In this document: piece by piece, positions 5,134 to 61,949 of the stretch
Position numbering within the stretch: the first letter of the stretch is position 1
Layout: every line of letters starts with the position of its first letter
Assembly (NCBI GenBank): GCA_000415965.1
Contig: KE356560.1
Span: 1,870,596 to 1,934,595, forward strand
DNA: 64,000 nt
DNA from: Haloquadratum walsbyi J07HQW1
GTDB lineage: Archaea > Halobacteriota > Halobacteria > Halobacteriales > Haloferacaceae
Direction: 5' to 3'
Made by a program: the position numbers and the translations under genes
Notes under the pieces: generated by a model
What the model was told of the DNA's origin: nothing
Database searches by the model: none
Seen by the model: the letters and a program-made list of their open reading frames with translations, nothing else

Positions 5134-5348
5134 ATGTCAAGTACGGCAGATTATCTCAATTTGTGACTACAGGCGTTACTTCAAGATACTTCCGGATCAT
5201 AGCTTCATTTAAGATAGCTTCGCGGGCACTGTCTCAGAGAGAATAAAAACGGGCTACTGTTGGCAATCTGAAGCTAGATACAACAGTCTGCCGTGCTCCA
5301 CAGGAGCGGACGGGTAATAGGACAAAGATTCATACTCACAAAGACTGA

Positions 5349-55583: not shown

Positions 55584-57074
55584 TTATTTGTTGCCCCGTG
55601 CGGTAGAAACCGCTGCATCTACGCGTTCAGCTGTCAATGCTGAGAGCGGAATCCGCTCACCGTTCGTCACAGAAACAATCGTCTCGGTGACCGTGGCTCG
55701 CGAGCGCGACCCGGCATCAACAACAACAACATGTGGATTATGTGCTGCAAGGGTCGTTGTAGCTGAGCGGACTGCGGCTGTCGGTCGCTCTCCAACAGCG
55801 TTCGCGCGACCATCAGTGACGAGTACGACAATTCCGGTGTCAGGGTCTGCACGCGACAGTACCTCTGTTGTTGTCTCGATTCCTGCAGTAAGTGGTGTTT
55901 GATCACCAGTCGGTAGCTCCTTGAGATGCCGCGCTGCTAAGCTTACATTGTCCGTTGGTGGGAGCATAACGTCAGCATCATCACCTGCAAATGCAATGAG
56001 TGCTACTTCATCGCGTTGCTGGTATGCATCCTTGAGAAGTTCAATTGCGACACCTTTTGCCGTCCGCATCGGACCGCGCATTGAAGCGCTTGCATCAACA
56101 GCAAAAACCACGAGTGCTGATGTTTCACCTGCACGAACCGACTGTCGAAGGTCTCGGGACGTGACATGGTCTGCTCCGCGTGAGGCAGCCGCTCGAATTG
56201 AGGCGCCAGCATCGACGTTCGAGTCTGTCGATGCTGCCTTTTCAGTTCGAACGCGGGCACCGCGATTTGTTGTATCTGCTGTCCCCGGCTGTGACCCGCC
56301 ATTAGATGCATCAGTTGATTGATTTTGATGCTCATTCTGTGCATCAATAGTGATATCAGGAGCTCGTGTGATCGACTCATCCGGATCGACTGCCGTTTCA
56401 GTGGATGGCTGTCCAGGAACTCGTGGCGTTGCCGTTTCAGTATCGGATTCATCATTATCCTCACCCGCCTGATTACTCTCTATTTCATTACTGGGATTGG
56501 ACGCATCCCCATCTGCGCCATCACTCTCTGCGGATGTGCTCTTCTCGGATGATGCGCCACCTGATTGCGGTGATGATCGACTGGATCCATCATGTGTTTC
56601 ATCGGTGTCTGCCCCGTCCTCAGGATGATCAGGAATATCCGCATTGTCATCATTCTCACTCTCGGTAGCACCCCGACTGTTGTCATCGTTTGATGATTGC
56701 GCTGATTGTGAGCGACCACCCTGAGAGTTACTTTCTTTCTGTGCGTCAGCATCATCAGCGGTATCAGCATCAGTGTCTGCGTCTATATCTGCGTCATCTG
56801 CTGTGTCCTCGGTATCACCCGATTCATCATCGAGATGCTCATCAAGAACGTCCTCTGGATTCGGTGCATCCTCAAACGGCGTCGATTGTAATCGATGTGG
56901 TAGTGCAAGTTCAGCTGCTCGACGGACATCCCCCTCAATGACTGTCGTCCGTCCCGCGAGTGCAGCAAACGTGATTGCAGCGCGAGCTGTTGCAATATCA
57001 GCGCGATGACCATCAACACCAGCGTCACGACAGAGTTCTGCGATATCAGTGGTGAACCCTGACGGAAGTGTCAC
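55584..57074 (-). CDS. chlD: ChlD-like VWA part of a ChlI-ChlD cobaltochelatase accessory protein (frameshifted from chlI)
   Basis: As read here, 496 residues from GTG 57074. The first residues (MTLPSGFTTDIAELCRDAGV) are the continuation of the ChlI lid (upstream in this frame: RERIIRARELLPS), so the native protein began further upstream in the chlI part. Residues 30-75 finish the lid. Residues 75-300 are a very long Asp/Ser/Asn/Glu-rich linker. Residues 305-496 are a VWA domain with the metal site FAVDASASMRG (D-x-S-x-S) and VVLVTDGRAN. With ChlI it should form the AAA+ ring that drives CobN. The shared gene is interrupted by a frameshift near 57200. Confidence 0.8.
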   Translation of the reverse strand: MTLPSGFTTDIAELCRDAGVDGHRADIATARAAITFAALAGRTTVIEGDVRRAAELALPHRLQSTPFEDAPNPEDVLDEHLDDESGDTEDTADDADIDADTDADTADDADAQKESNSQGGRSQSAQSSNDDNSRGATESENDDNADIPDHPEDGADTDETHDGSSRSSPQSGGASSEKSTSAESDGADGDASNPSNEIESNQAGEDNDESDTETATPRVPGQPSTETAVDPDESITRAPDITIDAQNEHQNQSTDASNGGSQPGTADTTNRGARVRTEKAASTDSNVDAGASIRAAASRGADHVTSRDLRQSVRAGETSALVVFAVDASASMRGPMRTAKGVAIELLKDAYQQRDEVALIAFAGDDADVMLPPTDNVSLAARHLKELPTGDQTPLTAGIETTTEVLSRADPDTGIVVLVTDGRANAVGERPTAAVRSATTTLAAHNPHVVVVDAGSRSRATVTETIVSVTNGERIPLSALTAERVDAAVSTARGNK

Positions 57075-57925
57075 TGATGGCAGTAACTCGCGTGCGCGAA
57101 TAATCCGTTCACGAGTGGCGGCAGGACTATGTGTGTCTGTCGCATCGTCGGACGGATGTGTATCGGTCTGATTCGATGAAGATGAAGATGAAGATGAAAT
57201 AATCCAGTCCCAGTCCCAGTCCCAGTCTCAGTCTCAGTCTCTCGATCACTCTGAAGTGCCTGCTCGATTACATCAACGCGATCAGGAATTTCCTCAAGCC
57301 CACTGACAGTCGCTTGCAATGCAAATCGATCCTTTAGTTGTGGTCGGAGGTCGCCCTCTTCGGGATTCATTGTTCCAATAAGCGTAAATGAAGCTGGATG
57401 AGTAACACTCACTCCATCACGCTCAACTCGATTTTCACCGCTCGCAGCGGCATCAAGTATCACATCCACAAGATGGTCATCAAGAAGATTGACCTCATCA
57501 ATATACAGTAAACCACGGTTGGCAGCCGCAAGCAACCCTGGATTGAATTCAGACTCGCCCTCAAGCGCAGCCTCGACTGAGAGACTCCCAACGACTCGCT
57601 CTCGAGTTGCCCCGAGTGGAAGTGTTATGAGTGGAACTGGACGGGACTCCACAGTTGGATTTATTCGCTCCTGACAGTCTGCACACTGCACCGACGGTCT
57701 ATGAGGTGGGCATCCATATGGACACTCGGTAATGACACGCTGTTCGGGTAATATCGCTCGTAACGCCCGTACAGTCGTTGATTTTGCTGTTCCTTTCTCA
57801 CCTTGAATGAGTAATCCATCAAGTGATTTATTCACGACAACCGACATGAGCGCATGCTTCAACTCATCCTGCCCCACAATGTCGGCGAACGCGACTGGCG
57901 TCGAAGTTTTTTTACTGTTCGCCAT
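57071..57925 (-). CDS. chlI: ChlI-like AAA+ ATPase part of the cobaltochelatase accessory protein, C-terminus out of frame
   Basis: Starts at ATG 57925 (MANSKKTSTPVAFADIVGQD); a longer frame to 57976 would run into the divergent cobN start. It has Walker A IQGEKGTAKSTTVRAL, the Cys-rich CPYGCPPHRPSVQCADC insert typical of haloarchaeal ChlI, Walker B LLYIDEVNLLDD, and sensor I TLIGTMNPEEGDLRPQL. After a Glu-Thr/Gly-Thr repeat (about residue 242) the frame reads an unnatural LFHLHLHLH and ends. The proper continuation (IISSSSSSSSNQTDTH) is in the frame of the downstream ChlD part. So the original gene was most likely one ChlI-ChlD fusion (55584-57925), broken by one base. Confidence 0.8.
   Translation of the reverse strand: MANSKKTSTPVAFADIVGQDELKHALMSVVVNKSLDGLLIQGEKGTAKSTTVRALRAILPEQRVITECPYGCPPHRPSVQCADCQERINPTVESRPVPLITLPLGATRERVVGSLSVEAALEGESEFNPGLLAAANRGLLYIDEVNLLDDHLVDVILDAAASGENRVERDGVSVTHPASFTLIGTMNPEEGDLRPQLKDRFALQATVSGLEEIPDRVDVIEQALQSDRETETETGTGTGTGLFHLHLHLHRIRPIHIRPTMRQTHIVLPPLVNGLFAHASYCHQ
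57175..57242 (-). repeat. Two adjoining hexanucleotide tracts, (GATGAA)n and (CCAGTC)n
   Basis: Plus-strand (GATGAA)4 at 57175-57198 is followed by AT-rich spacer bases and then (CCAGTC/TCAGTC)n at 57204-57242. On the coding strand these give Ser-Ser and Thr-Gly/Thr-Glu repeats. The reading frame changes exactly at the spacer between the two tracts. Confidence 0.9.
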
Positions 57926-57968: not shown

Positions 57969-60900
57969 ATGCCCACAATCGGTCTTTATACGGCGACTGA
58001 GAACGAACTCGGATCGGTTCAGCGTGCTGCTGCTAGTCTTGCTGATGATATTTCTCTTGTCGTTCGGTCAGCAAGTGATCTTGATGACCCAACCGACACT
58101 GAGGCGTTTCTCGAGGAGGTGACTGGCACCGGCACCGGCACCGGCACCGGCACCGGCACCGGCACCGGCACCGGCACTGACACCGACCCAGCGGCAACGG
58201 TCTTTTGGCTCCATGGAGGCGAAGAAAGTCTTCCAGGGTATGAACAGGCCGTGACCAAGCTTGCTGAAGCAGGGGTCCCACTCATTGTCAAATCAACCGG
58301 TGATGCATACGCAATGGAGGACACATCCGTTGATACCACCACTCGCAATCAGGCATATGAATATCTTGAGCGTGGTGGAACGAGCAATATCACAAATCTG
58401 CTTCGATATCTGGCTGAAACATTCGGATCTGAGACATATCCATATGATGATCCGGTAACGCTTCCCACAGAAGGAGTATATCACCCTGATCACCCGGGAG
58501 TGAGCTATGATGAACTTCGATCGACGTTCGATCCAGGTCGTCCAACGGTCGCAATCTGGTTTTATGAGTCTCATTGGACACATGAGAACACACAATATAT
58601 TGATGCGCAGGTGCGTGCGCTCGAGGCGAATGGTGCGAATGCACTTCCAATCTTCTGTAATCCAGCGACGGACACTGATGATCAACAAGACGCTGAATGG
58701 GTTACTGACACGTGGTTGATTGATGATGGTGACCCGGTTGTTGATGCCGTGCTCTCCTCATTCATGTTCTCATTATCAATGGATGAGCGAGGGCGAAGCG
58801 CCAGCGACGAGGGTAACAGTGCAGAAGATGTTTTTCTTGATCGACTTGGTGTCCCTGTGCTTCAGACTATTACGACAATGCGCTCGCGCTCGCGATATGA
58901 GGGCAGCACCACCGGAGTGATGGGATTTGAACTCGCACTCTCAGTTGCTCTTCCAGAGTTTGATGGGAACGTCATCACCCACCCAATTAGCGGGAAAGAG
59001 CGACTTGATGATGACGCCGGGATTGGAAGTGCACCGAAACAGCATCATCCGATGGCTGACCGGATTGATCATGCGACTCGTCTTGCAGTCAACTGGGCTC
59101 GACTTCGATATCTCGAAAATGATGAAAAACGTGTTGCGGTTGTACTGCACAATTACCCGCCGAGTGATGATGGTATTGGGACTGCATTTGGGCTCGATTC
59201 CCCAGAGAGTACTATCAACCTCCTTGATGAACTCGCTGAACGAGAATATGACCTTGGTGGTCGTCGACCAGAGAGTGGACAAGCCCTCATCGATCAACTG
59301 ACAGCACAACTCACACTCGATGATCGCTGGGTCGCCCCAGCAGATGTTCGCGATCTCAGTGTTGATGTCGTCTCCGCTGATCAGTATCGCGAGTGGTTCC
59401 TCGACACTGATGACCGATTCCAAGAAAACCTCCGTGATGAGTGGGGCGCCCCGCCGGATCGACCCTTTGCAATTCCAGGTATCGAGTTTGGAAATGTTCT
59501 CGTTACTGTCCAACCACCGCGTGGATTTGGGATGGACCGATCCAAGATATATCACGACTCAGATCTCCAGCCACCGCATGACTATCTCGCGTTTTATAAA
59601 TGGCTCCGCGAAGAGTTCGCAGCTGATGCAGTCGTTCATCTTGGCACGCATGGGTCCTTAGAATGGCTCCCAGGCAAGACTGTTGGACTCAATGCAGAGA
59701 GTGCTTCTGACCAACTTGTCTCAGCGCTTCCGAACATCTATCCATATATTATTAATAATCCTGGTGAGGGAACACAAGCCAAGCGGCGGTCATATGCTGC
59801 GGTCGTTGATTATCTCACGCCCGTTATGTCAAATGCGGGAACGTATGACGACCTGCAGGAACTCGAATCACTCGCTGAGCAGTACCGAGAGGCGGGCATG
59901 ACCGATGCTCGGAGCGACGATGGTGAACAACTTGAGACGCATATTCGCGAGCATGTTGACGAGCTTGATCTTGCAGTCGAATTGGGTATCACAGGCACTA
60001 TCGATGAGAAAGCAGAGGTTCGCGGTCCTGATGCTGCGGGGTCAACACTTGCATCCGGGAATGTGACGGGGGATGTTGTCGATATTGACACTCTCGTCGA
60101 ACGCATTCATGAGTATTTGACAGATATAAAAACGACCCAAATTCGCATGGGACTACACACAATGAGTGAGCCGCCAATCGACGAGCGTCTCATCGAATAT
60201 CTCGTTGCACTCACCCGACTTGAAAACCCAGGAGTGCCGAGTCTTCGTGAGGCGGTTGCTGGTGTCCTTGGTGTTGATTATGATCGGCTTCGTAATGATC
60301 CCGGAGTCTATGATGCGGATCTTGGAATGACATATGCTGCTGCTGCGGATGTTGTCTATGAGACAAGTTGTGACCTCGTTGAAACACTTGCGGCTGAGGA
60401 GTTTTCGATTCCAGCATCTGAACGCGAGGCTGGTCCTCATGATGAGGTAAATATGAATCTGCTGGTTGTCGATATCGACACAATTGGTGACGCCCGAGCC
60501 ACTGCTGGTGCACACGATGATCTTCGGGAGGTACTCGAGTTTATCTGTACAGAGGCTGCCCCGCGTGTCGCTGCAGCTGAGGAAGAAATCCCGCAGACCG
60601 CAGACGCACTCGATGGTGCGTATGTTGAACCCGGCGGATCAGGTGCCCCAACGCGCGGTGGCGTTGATCTCCTGCCAACTGGGCGAAACTTCTACACACT
60701 TGATCCACGCAAAGTCCCAGCAAAAACGGCGTGGCGTGTTGGTCGTGAGGTTGCTGCTGGCGTCGCCGAGCGACATTATACCGAATCTGGAGAATACCCG
60801 GAGGAAATCGGTGTTGTTGCATGGGGGACGCCGACGGTTCGAACTCGTGGAGAGACAATCGCACAGGTACTTGCATTGATGGGCGTCGAACCACAGTGGA

Positions 60901-61949
60901 CTGACGCCGGTCGGATTGACGATGTTGAGCCCATCCCTCTGGCAGAACTCGATCGACCGCGTATTGATGTGACAACACGGGTCTCTGGACTGTTCCGAGA
61001 TGCCTTTCCACAGGCGGCAAGTGTCATTCATGATGCAGTTGAAGCTGTTGTCGAACTTGATGAGTCTCATGACGAGAATTATATTAAAAAACACGTTGAG
61101 ACTGAAACAGCAGAATATGAAGCCGATGGTATAGATACAGACGATGCCCGAAGCACTGCCATGCATCGAGTGTTCACAACGACACCTGGCGGGTACGGTG
61201 CTGGGACAAACAAAGCAGTTGATGAAGGAAACTGGGATGACCAAAGTGATCTCGCATCCGTCTACGTCCAGTGGGGTGGATACGCACTCGAAAGTCGTGG
61301 ACGAGTGACCGATGCACATGATGCATTCAAACAGCGATTGAGTACTGTCGAGGCGACTGTCAAAATCGAGGATACTGCCGAACAGGATGAACTCGATTCC
61401 TCTGATTGGTATGCTTTCCACGGTGGATTCATCACCGCAGTCAGTGAGCATGCTGACTCAGAACCGGCTTCATACGTCGGTGATTCAAGTGACCCTGATA
61501 ACGTCTCTGTGTATACCAATGAAGAAAAAGTTCGCAAAGCAATGCGAGCACGTGTTCTGAATCCAGCATGGATTGATTCGATGAAAGATCATGATTATAA
61601 GGGCGCTGGTGACCTTTCAACGACGGTTGATGTCGTACTTGGTTGGGATGCAACAACAGGTGTTATCAGCGATACGCTATGGGAGGATGTCGCAGATGCA
61701 TACGCCTTCGATGCAGACCGACAGGAGTGGCTTCGCGATGTCAATCCATGGGCACTTGAATCGATCACTGACACATTGCTTGAGGCCGCCGAACGCGATC
61801 TTTGGGATGCGTCTGCGGAGACAGTCGAACAACTCCGCGATCTCAATCTTGCCGTTGACGGTGATATCGAAGCTCGTGACCGCAGTTCAACACCTCACGG
61901 GATATCTGAGACCGATTCCGAGCCAGGAGTGACAAATGATGACGACTGA
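57969..61949 (+). CDS. cobN: Cobaltochelatase large subunit CobN
   Basis: A 1326-residue cytoplasmic protein of the CobN/BchH family. It has the N-terminal IGLYTATENELGSVQRAAAS, RPTVAIWFYESHWTHENTQY, the conserved FHIGTHGS-type motif (AVVHLGTHGSLEWLPGKTVG), NPGEGTQAKRRSYAAVVDYL, GRNFYTLDPRKVPAKTAW and TPGGYGAGTNKAVDEGNWDD near the end. With the ChlI/ChlD AAA+ partners it inserts Co2+ into the corrin ring at ATP cost. A Gly-Thr repeat of about 18 residues (58125-58178) sits near residue 55-70, in a surface position by the look of its flanks. It overlaps cbiC by 14 bases, so the genes are co-translated. Confidence 0.95.
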   Translation: MPTIGLYTATENELGSVQRAAASLADDISLVVRSASDLDDPTDTEAFLEEVTGTGTGTGTGTGTGTGTGTDTDPAATVFWLHGGEESLPGYEQAVTKLAEAGVPLIVKSTGDAYAMEDTSVDTTTRNQAYEYLERGGTSNITNLLRYLAETFGSETYPYDDPVTLPTEGVYHPDHPGVSYDELRSTFDPGRPTVAIWFYESHWTHENTQYIDAQVRALEANGANALPIFCNPATDTDDQQDAEWVTDTWLIDDGDPVVDAVLSSFMFSLSMDERGRSASDEGNSAEDVFLDRLGVPVLQTITTMRSRSRYEGSTTGVMGFELALSVALPEFDGNVITHPISGKERLDDDAGIGSAPKQHHPMADRIDHATRLAVNWARLRYLENDEKRVAVVLHNYPPSDDGIGTAFGLDSPESTINLLDELAEREYDLGGRRPESGQALIDQLTAQLTLDDRWVAPADVRDLSVDVVSADQYREWFLDTDDRFQENLRDEWGAPPDRPFAIPGIEFGNVLVTVQPPRGFGMDRSKIYHDSDLQPPHDYLAFYKWLREEFAADAVVHLGTHGSLEWLPGKTVGLNAESASDQLVSALPNIYPYIINNPGEGTQAKRRSYAAVVDYLTPVMSNAGTYDDLQELESLAEQYREAGMTDARSDDGEQLETHIREHVDELDLAVELGITGTIDEKAEVRGPDAAGSTLASGNVTGDVVDIDTLVERIHEYLTDIKTTQIRMGLHTMSEPPIDERLIEYLVALTRLENPGVPSLREAVAGVLGVDYDRLRNDPGVYDADLGMTYAAAADVVYETSCDLVETLAAEEFSIPASEREAGPHDEVNMNLLVVDIDTIGDARATAGAHDDLREVLEFICTEAAPRVAAAEEEIPQTADALDGAYVEPGGSGAPTRGGVDLLPTGRNFYTLDPRKVPAKTAWRVGREVAAGVAERHYTESGEYPEEIGVVAWGTPTVRTRGETIAQVLALMGVEPQWTDAGRIDDVEPIPLAELDRPRIDVTTRVSGLFRDAFPQAASVIHDAVEAVVELDESHDENYIKKHVETETAEYEADGIDTDDARSTAMHRVFTTTPGGYGAGTNKAVDEGNWDDQSDLASVYVQWGGYALESRGRVTDAHDAFKQRLSTVEATVKIEDTAEQDELDSSDWYAFHGGFITAVSEHADSEPASYVGDSSDPDNVSVYTNEEKVRKAMRARVLNPAWIDSMKDHDYKGAGDLSTTVDVVLGWDATTGVISDTLWEDVADAYAFDADRQEWLRDVNPWALESITDTLLEAAERDLWDASAETVEQLRDLNLAVDGDIEARDRSSTPHGISETDSEPGVTNDDD
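58125..58178 (+). repeat. (GGCACC)n hexanucleotide tract in cobN
   Basis: Eight perfect GGCACC units and one GGCACT, coding for alternating Gly and Thr near the CobN N-terminus. In frame, so the reading frame is preserved whatever the copy number. Confidence 0.95.

What the first reader, a model, noticed from the sequence alone, without database searches (positions are those of the whole stretch)
57071..57925. ChlI-ChlD cobaltochelatase gene broken exactly between two hexanucleotide repeat tracts
In the chlI frame the coding strand reads Glu-Thr/Gly-Thr repeats and then an unnatural LFHLHLHLHR tail. In the frame shifted by one base it reads IISSSSSSSSNQTDTH and continues into RERIIRARELLPSVTLPSGF, the normal ChlI lid, and on into the VWA domain. 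The frame change falls at the spacer between (CCAGTC)n and (GATGAA)n. So a single-base deletion (or two-base insertion) at a repeat junction splits a fused ChlI-ChlD protein whose partner cobN is intact. Either the chelatase works as two pieces, translation shifts frame here, or cobalt insertion is lost. The local sequence does not look like a classical slippery heptamer.
Basis: partly seen in the sequence, partly recalled or inferred. Interest (0 to 1): 0.75.

Follow-up and report, generated by a model that had tools for sequence, protein, structure and literature searches.

The report
Frame-broken chelatase gene, likely consensus error
An ordinary cobalt-chelatase helper gene of a square salt-lake archaeon is out of frame at short six-base repeats in this environmental composite genome, most likely a sequence-consensus error or a very recent private mutation rather than a new way of making the protein.

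Summary
On the minus strand the ChlI-like AAA+ core (57925-57071) and the lid-linker-VWA part lie in frames that differ by one base; the change falls at two hexamer tracts (57175-57198, 57204-57239). By exact length the genome is Haloquadratum J07HQW2, a composite Lake Tyrrell metagenome consensus. The break is private: 65 of 65 haloarchaeal loci (64 distinct) keep core and lid in one frame, and 64 of 65 show no stop between core and VWA; the exception carries an Illumina adapter. C23, the closest, has one ORF and no tracts. Lid and VWA show strong purifying selection (dN/dS 0.044, 0.051) and no stops, so the break is very recent or not real. It is unlike programmed -1 frameshifting of chlD: 17 of 17 such loci break after the lid at a run of 7-10 A; here the break precedes the lid, with no run above 3. 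Whole-unit slippage keeps frame. Verdict: consensus error about 0.5, recent real null allele about 0.37, functional split or recoding about 0.06; only reads can separate the first two. Six-base "polyrepeats" are a published Haloquadratum feature, dense in this genome.

The parts
57071..57925 (-). ORF1: ChlI-type AAA+ core without its lid, followed by tract-coded residues and an out-of-frame tail, ending at TGA 57073-57071
55584..57227 (-). Second open frame: poly-Ser tract reading, AAA_lid_2, acidic linker, VWA domain; only start codon inside the overlap is GTG 57074
57204..57239 (.). Hexamer tract 1, (CCAGTC)n on the plus strand, read as ETETETGTGTGTG in the ORF1 frame; absent from C23
57175..57198 (.). 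Hexamer tract 2, (GATGAA)4 on the plus strand, read as poly-Ser in the lid frame and FHLHLHLHR in the ORF1 frame; absent from C23
57164..57230 (-). Interval in which the reading frame changes by codon usage (within 3 nats of the best change point)
57071..57074 (-). GTGA overlap of the ORF1 stop and the only start codon of the other frame within the overlap
57969..61949 (+). cobN, intact, divergently oriented partner gene; carries its own in-frame (GGCACC)n tract at 58125-58185

Best explanation
This is an ordinary single-gene haloarchaeal ChlID (AAA+ core, lid, acidic linker, VWA), neighbour and presumed partner of CobN. In this lineage two hexamer 'polyrepeats' have grown in a core-lid loop whose length varies among relatives. 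The net one-base frame change at that insertion is most likely a consensus error of the composite metagenome assembly, where reads of a mixed population were merged across a tandem-repeat site; the living gene would then be in frame. Inferred: that the wrong base count arose in the consensus rather than in the cell.
For: The genome length equals that of J07HQW2, a Sanger plus 454 consensus population genome. Completeness is 89.62, and no alanyl-tRNA synthetase reaches the family cut-off although C23 and J07HQW1 have one. Break private: 65 of 65 relatives (64 distinct) keep core and lid in frame. dN/dS 0.044 (lid) and 0.051 (VWA), like cobN 0.050, with no stops. The one other broken relative, L077, carries a sequencing adapter. 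PMC3711429 (passages) expects homology-validated singleton frameshifts to be sequencing errors. Frame breaks coincide with 3 of 24 tracts in conserved genes, where a rough uniform expectation is 0.06 (it assumes 20 breaks and 55 nt per tract).
Against: No homopolymer above 3 at the site, and coverage of J07HQW2 is described as mainly long-read Sanger (PMC4330952 passages), which makes few such errors. The rate of frame-broken genes, 18 of 418, is not significantly above that of J07HQW1 from the same project (2 of 139, p 0.18) or of C23 as seen from J07HQW1 (4 of 136, p 0.62). Three of four essential families tested are intact here. Tract-associated breaks are equally expected from real mutation at unstable repeats.
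Confidence: 0.5

Rival explanations
1. A real, very recent (possibly still polymorphic) indel at the unstable tracts made a null chlID allele in this population: the start of loss of the CobN-ChlID chelatase.
For: cobN, chlID and cbiC give no orthologue in G016 (J07HQW1 by length, 98% complete), nor in G012 and G014 (68 and 72% complete), so the system is dispensable in near relatives. The function may be cobalamin salvage (PMC8305020 passages). The genome is rich in hexamer tracts and 3 of 24 in conserved genes break frame. No homopolymer at the site.
Against: Purifying selection on lid and VWA and no further stop in 507 codons; cobN intact and constrained. These allow only a very young lesion.
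Confidence: 0.37
2. The chelatase works despite the break: a -1 frameshift during translation joins the halves, or translation restarts at the GTG that overlaps the ORF1 stop and the two pieces assemble.
For: A -1 shift is the same direction as in fs-chlD genes. Both frames are open for 154 nt and the stop and start overlap as GTGA. Both halves look selected.
Against: 17 of 17 fs-chlD loci break after the lid at a run of 7-10 A; here the break is before the lid, without heptamer or run above 3. No haloarchaeal relative has it. The GTG lies 48 nt inside the conserved family match and I see no Shine-Dalgarno-like sequence in the 20 nt upstream (by eye). A stop preceded by A or G arises often by chance. 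ORF1 lacks the lid, which carries the sensor-2 arginine of such ATPases (recalled).
Confidence: 0.06
3. The two tracts form a phase-variable switch that turns the gene on and off by repeat slippage.
For: Two adjacent tandem tracts in a coding region that are absent from C23.
Against: Gain or loss of 6-base units never changes the frame; 21 of 24 conserved-gene tracts here and 8 of 8 in C23 keep it, and the published polyrepeat indels in coding regions conserve frame (PMC3119063 section 13).
Confidence: 0.02

Closest known systems
Haloarchaeal chlID beside cobN (Haloferax volcanii HVO_B0050 and HVO_B0051; NCBIfam TIGR02442)
   Same: Domain order core, lid, acidic linker, VWA; neighbour cobN; 90% identity of the core to the C23 copy
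   Different: One continuous ORF in 64 of 65 loci examined; two frames here
fs-chlD genes with programmed -1 ribosomal frameshifting (PMC3711429, PMC9227772)
   Same: A chlD-type gene in two overlapping frames, downstream part in the -1 frame
   Different: Break before the lid instead of after it; no A-run or other slippery site; not shared by any relative
Haloquadratum 6-mer 'polyrepeats' (PMC3119063, section 13)
   Same: 6-mer tandem units whose copy number or presence differs between strains and that code dipeptide repeats
   Different: Published coding examples conserve the frame; here the net change does not

Membership tests
Haloarchaeal ChlID (TIGR02442) | ChlI-type AAA+ core, AAA lid and VWA domain in this order | tested here: met
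   (in two frames)
Haloarchaeal ChlID (TIGR02442) | cobN next to it | tested here: met
Haloarchaeal ChlID (TIGR02442) | One continuous reading frame | tested here: not met
Haloarchaeal ChlID (TIGR02442) | Score over the curated cut-off (779 bits) | tested here: inconclusive
   The pieces score 347 and 289 bits; in the genome search the C23 gene is not over the cut-off either
fs-chlD (programmed -1 frameshift) | Downstream part in the -1 frame | tested here: met
   same in 17 of 17 control loci
fs-chlD (programmed -1 frameshift) | A-rich slippery site in the overlap | tested here: not met
   No run of 4 or more and no X-XXY-YYZ heptamer; 17 of 17 controls have 7-10 A
fs-chlD (programmed -1 frameshift) | Short product holds core and lid | tested here: not met
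   Break before the lid; after it in 17 of 17 controls
fs-chlD (programmed -1 frameshift) | Frame transition conserved among relatives | tested here: not met
   0 of 65 haloarchaeal loci
Haloquadratum polyrepeat | 6-mer tandem unit differing between strains | tested here: met
   Present here, absent from C23
Haloquadratum polyrepeat | Reading frame conserved when in a gene | tested here: not met
   Frame differs here; kept in 21 of 24 tracts in conserved genes
Translationally coupled split gene | Start of the second ORF overlaps the first stop | tested here: met
   GTGA, 57074-57071
Translationally coupled split gene | Second ORF starts upstream of its conserved domain | tested here: not met
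   TIGR02442 match begins at 57122, the only start codon is at 57074
Translationally coupled split gene | Two proteins are actually made | not testable with these tools
   Needs proteomics or reporters

The most novel reading that the evidence does not exclude
Repeat growth in the core-lid loop has split ChlID into an AAA+ core without its lid and a lid-VWA protein started at the overlapping GTG (or joined by a -1 shift without a classical slippery site), and the pieces assemble into a working chelatase: an AAA+ motor divided between core and lid.
Probability: 0.05. Interest if true: 0.65.

Novelty: not a real feature. Interest (0 to 1): 0.17.

Why it matters
Mostly as a caution. chlD is a textbook gene for programmed frameshifting, so a frame break in it invites that reading; position relative to the lid and the lack of an A-run separate the two cleanly. 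It also points to a genome rich in period-6 tracts (97 in 1.2 Mb against 44 in 1.2 Mb of C23 and 3 in 0.5 Mb of other haloarchaeal loci), at a few of which conserved genes lose frame (3 of 24). If the break proves real, it catches the loss of a cobalt chelatase in progress.

Tried and rejected
Programmed frameshifting was tested against 17 fs-chlD loci and set aside on site, position and conservation. Five of the 22 non-haloarchaeal loci (L080, L084, L085, L095, L098) gave no VWA hit and were not counted. Phase variation was set aside because units of 6 keep frame. A second intact copy: none found in this genome.

A genome-wide excess of frameshifts as proof of assembly error did not hold up. 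18 of 418 C23 genes look frame-broken in 1.2 Mb of J07HQW2, plus one with a stop only; the reverse count is 13 of 426, plus one with a stop only, and by eye 8 of those 13 rows mirror the same J07HQW2 events. J07HQW1 shows 2 of 139 against C23 genes and 5 of 93 against J07HQW2 ORFs; J07HQW1 ORFs give 4 of 136 broken in C23 and 2 of 87 in J07HQW2. The two comparisons tested are not significant. I did not curate the 18: one holds an assembly gap (312), some C23 ORFs may not be real genes, one (514) may be broken in C23 instead, and one (563) may be an N-terminal difference. A first 400-kb census is superseded. By eye, four more of the 18 (202, 472, 477, 595) have 6-base-like repeats in the inserted stretch; of these only 472 passes the 18-nt tract test. 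Essential families: valS, ileS and the Rpb2 domain intact, alaS not found. No structure was predicted; it would not decide between the explanations.

Full report
What is there. On the minus strand, ATG 57925 opens a 284-residue frame that begins with a ChlI-type AAA+ core (Pfam Mg_chelatase, AAA_5; TIGR02442 positions 3-222) and ends at TGA 57073-57071. The frame one base off is open from 57227 to 55584 and carries AAA_lid_2, an acidic linker and a VWA domain. The tracts are (GATGAA)4 at 57175-57198 and (CCAGTC)n at 57204-57239. In the ORF1 frame tract 1 reads ETETETGTGTGTG, and in the lid frame tract 2 reads poly-Ser, each a plausible linker in its own frame only. Codon usage puts the change between 57230 and 57164.

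Where it comes from. The window lies in a 3,475,501-base single contig. That is the length printed for 'Haloquadratum walsbyi str J07HQW2' in Table 1 of PMC3630111 (passages and section 6 seen), a consensus population genome assembled with Celera from Sanger and 454 reads of Lake Tyrrell, mean depth 8.8x. PMC4330952 (passages) gives 8.7x Sanger coverage and gaps along 0.5%. G016 (3,594,539 bases) matches J07HQW1 in the same table, and G015 contig 3 (3,148,033) matches the C23 chromosome (PMC3119063 Table 1, passage). These identities rest on length only. The assembly seems imperfect: completeness 89.62, and the alanyl-tRNA synthetase family, over its cut-off in C23 and J07HQW1, gives only two partial hits here. 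Against that, valS, ileS and the Rpb2 domain are intact.

Relatives. In C23 the gene is one ORF, 762 residues from the homologous ATG, without tracts. The 58 come from the best 80 of a capped list. Core and lid share a frame in 65 of 65, and no stop lies between core and VWA in 64 of 65; for 5 of the 7 same-genus loci the fetched stretch ends inside the VWA. The exception, L077, has an Illumina Nextera sequence at its stop (the adapter is recalled). The core-lid segment varies naturally, 62-131 residues in the 62 of 65 loci where I could measure it, so insertions there are tolerated. cobN carries its own tract (58125-58185), absent from C23 and in frame.

Selection. Against C23, dN/dS is 0.082 for the core, 0.044 for the lid, 0.303 for the acidic linker, 0.051 for the VWA and 0.050 for cobN; there is no stop in the 507 aligned codons after the break. 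Whole halves measured over BLAST segments give 0.125 and 0.182, and the median of 370 unbroken genes is 0.090. The gene was therefore functional until very recently, or still is.

Known frameshifting of chlD. Programmed -1 frameshifting is reported to make two chelatase subunits from one chlD gene (PMC9227772, parts 1-3 of 4; PMC3711429, passages, with tested efficiencies of 63, 40 and 10% at A-runs; the 2020 paper on this gene is not held). The non-haloarchaeal loci among my hits served as a positive control: in 17 of 17 loci whose VWA was found (of 22 loci), the VWA is in the -1 frame, core and lid are together in the first ORF, and an A-run of 7-10 sits in the overlap. The window's break has the same direction but lies before the lid, has no run above 3 and no X-XXY-YYZ heptamer, and occurs in none of the 65 relatives. 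The GTG that overlaps the ORF1 stop lies 48 nt inside the family match, so restart there would drop conserved lid residues. I consider recoding or a coupled split unlikely, though not excluded.

Hexamer tracts. Period-6 tracts of 18 nt or more number 97 in 1.2 Mb here, 44 in 1.2 Mb of C23, 12 in 0.4 Mb of J07HQW1 and 3 in 0.5 Mb of the 58 haloarchaeal loci. In this genome the next commonest period is 9 (31, two copies suffice at that length), others 7 or fewer; C23 also has period 9 (42) and 10-13 each of periods 7, 8, 10 and 12. At 24 nt or more the counts for period 6 are 28, 14, 2 and 0. Such 6-mer 'polyrepeats', with dipeptide repeats of different length and conserved frame in several coding regions, are already described between C23 and HBSQ001 (PMC3119063, section 13). 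Two searches listed, among the best 15 of 1,216 and of 1,701 papers, no other Haloquadratum paper on them; I looked no further. Of 93 merged tracts here, 24 lie in genes aligned with C23: 21 keep frame and 3 do not (this gene and two others); in C23, 8 of 43 lie in aligned genes and all 8 keep frame. Slippage by whole units keeps frame, so the one-base offset is a separate event beside the tracts, or an error of reading across them.

Error or mutation. For error: composite consensus, missing alaS, strong selection, privacy, and the published expectation that homology-validated singleton frameshifts are sequencing errors. For a real mutation: no homopolymer at the site, Sanger coverage, and absence of cobN, chlID and cbiC from G016, G012 and G014, which suggests dispensability, although G012 and G014 are only 68 and 72% complete. 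The rate of frame-broken conserved genes is 18 of 418 here, 2 of 139 in J07HQW1, and 4 of 136 for C23 seen from J07HQW1; the differences are not significant. I therefore cannot settle this and give 0.5 to error and 0.37 to a recent real indel; only reads will decide.

Noticed in passing
G000 whole genome (J07HQW2 by length): No alanyl-tRNA synthetase over the family cut-off, only two partial hits, while C23 and J07HQW1 have one: a universally needed gene seems to be missing from this single scaffold.
   Followed up: partly
G000:C1:1330596-2530595: Period-6 tandem tracts of 18 nt or more are about twice as dense as in C23 and some 13 times as dense as in 58 other haloarchaeal loci (97 in 1.2 Mb, 44 in 1.2 Mb, 3 in 0.5 Mb).
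   Followed up: partly
window 58125-58185: (GGCACC)n tract inside cobN, read in frame as a Thr-Gly repeat; C23 cobN has no such repeat there.
   Followed up: yes
L077:5118-5140 (Haloferax prahovense contig): chlID interrupted in its acidic linker by an Illumina Nextera adapter sequence, with an N at 5146: a public-assembly artefact.
   Followed up: yes
L011, L012, L014-L017, L019, L020 (G003, G005, G006, G013): Some relatives carry a second, neighbouring pair of chelatase-like AAA+ genes, one frame of 366-396 aa and one of 672-699 aa, 53-56% identical to the window's core: a separate ChlI plus ChlD arrangement.
   Followed up: no
G016, G012, G014: cobN, chlID and cbiC all lack an orthologue in these near relatives, suggesting joint loss or lack of the cobalamin cluster.
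   Followed up: partly
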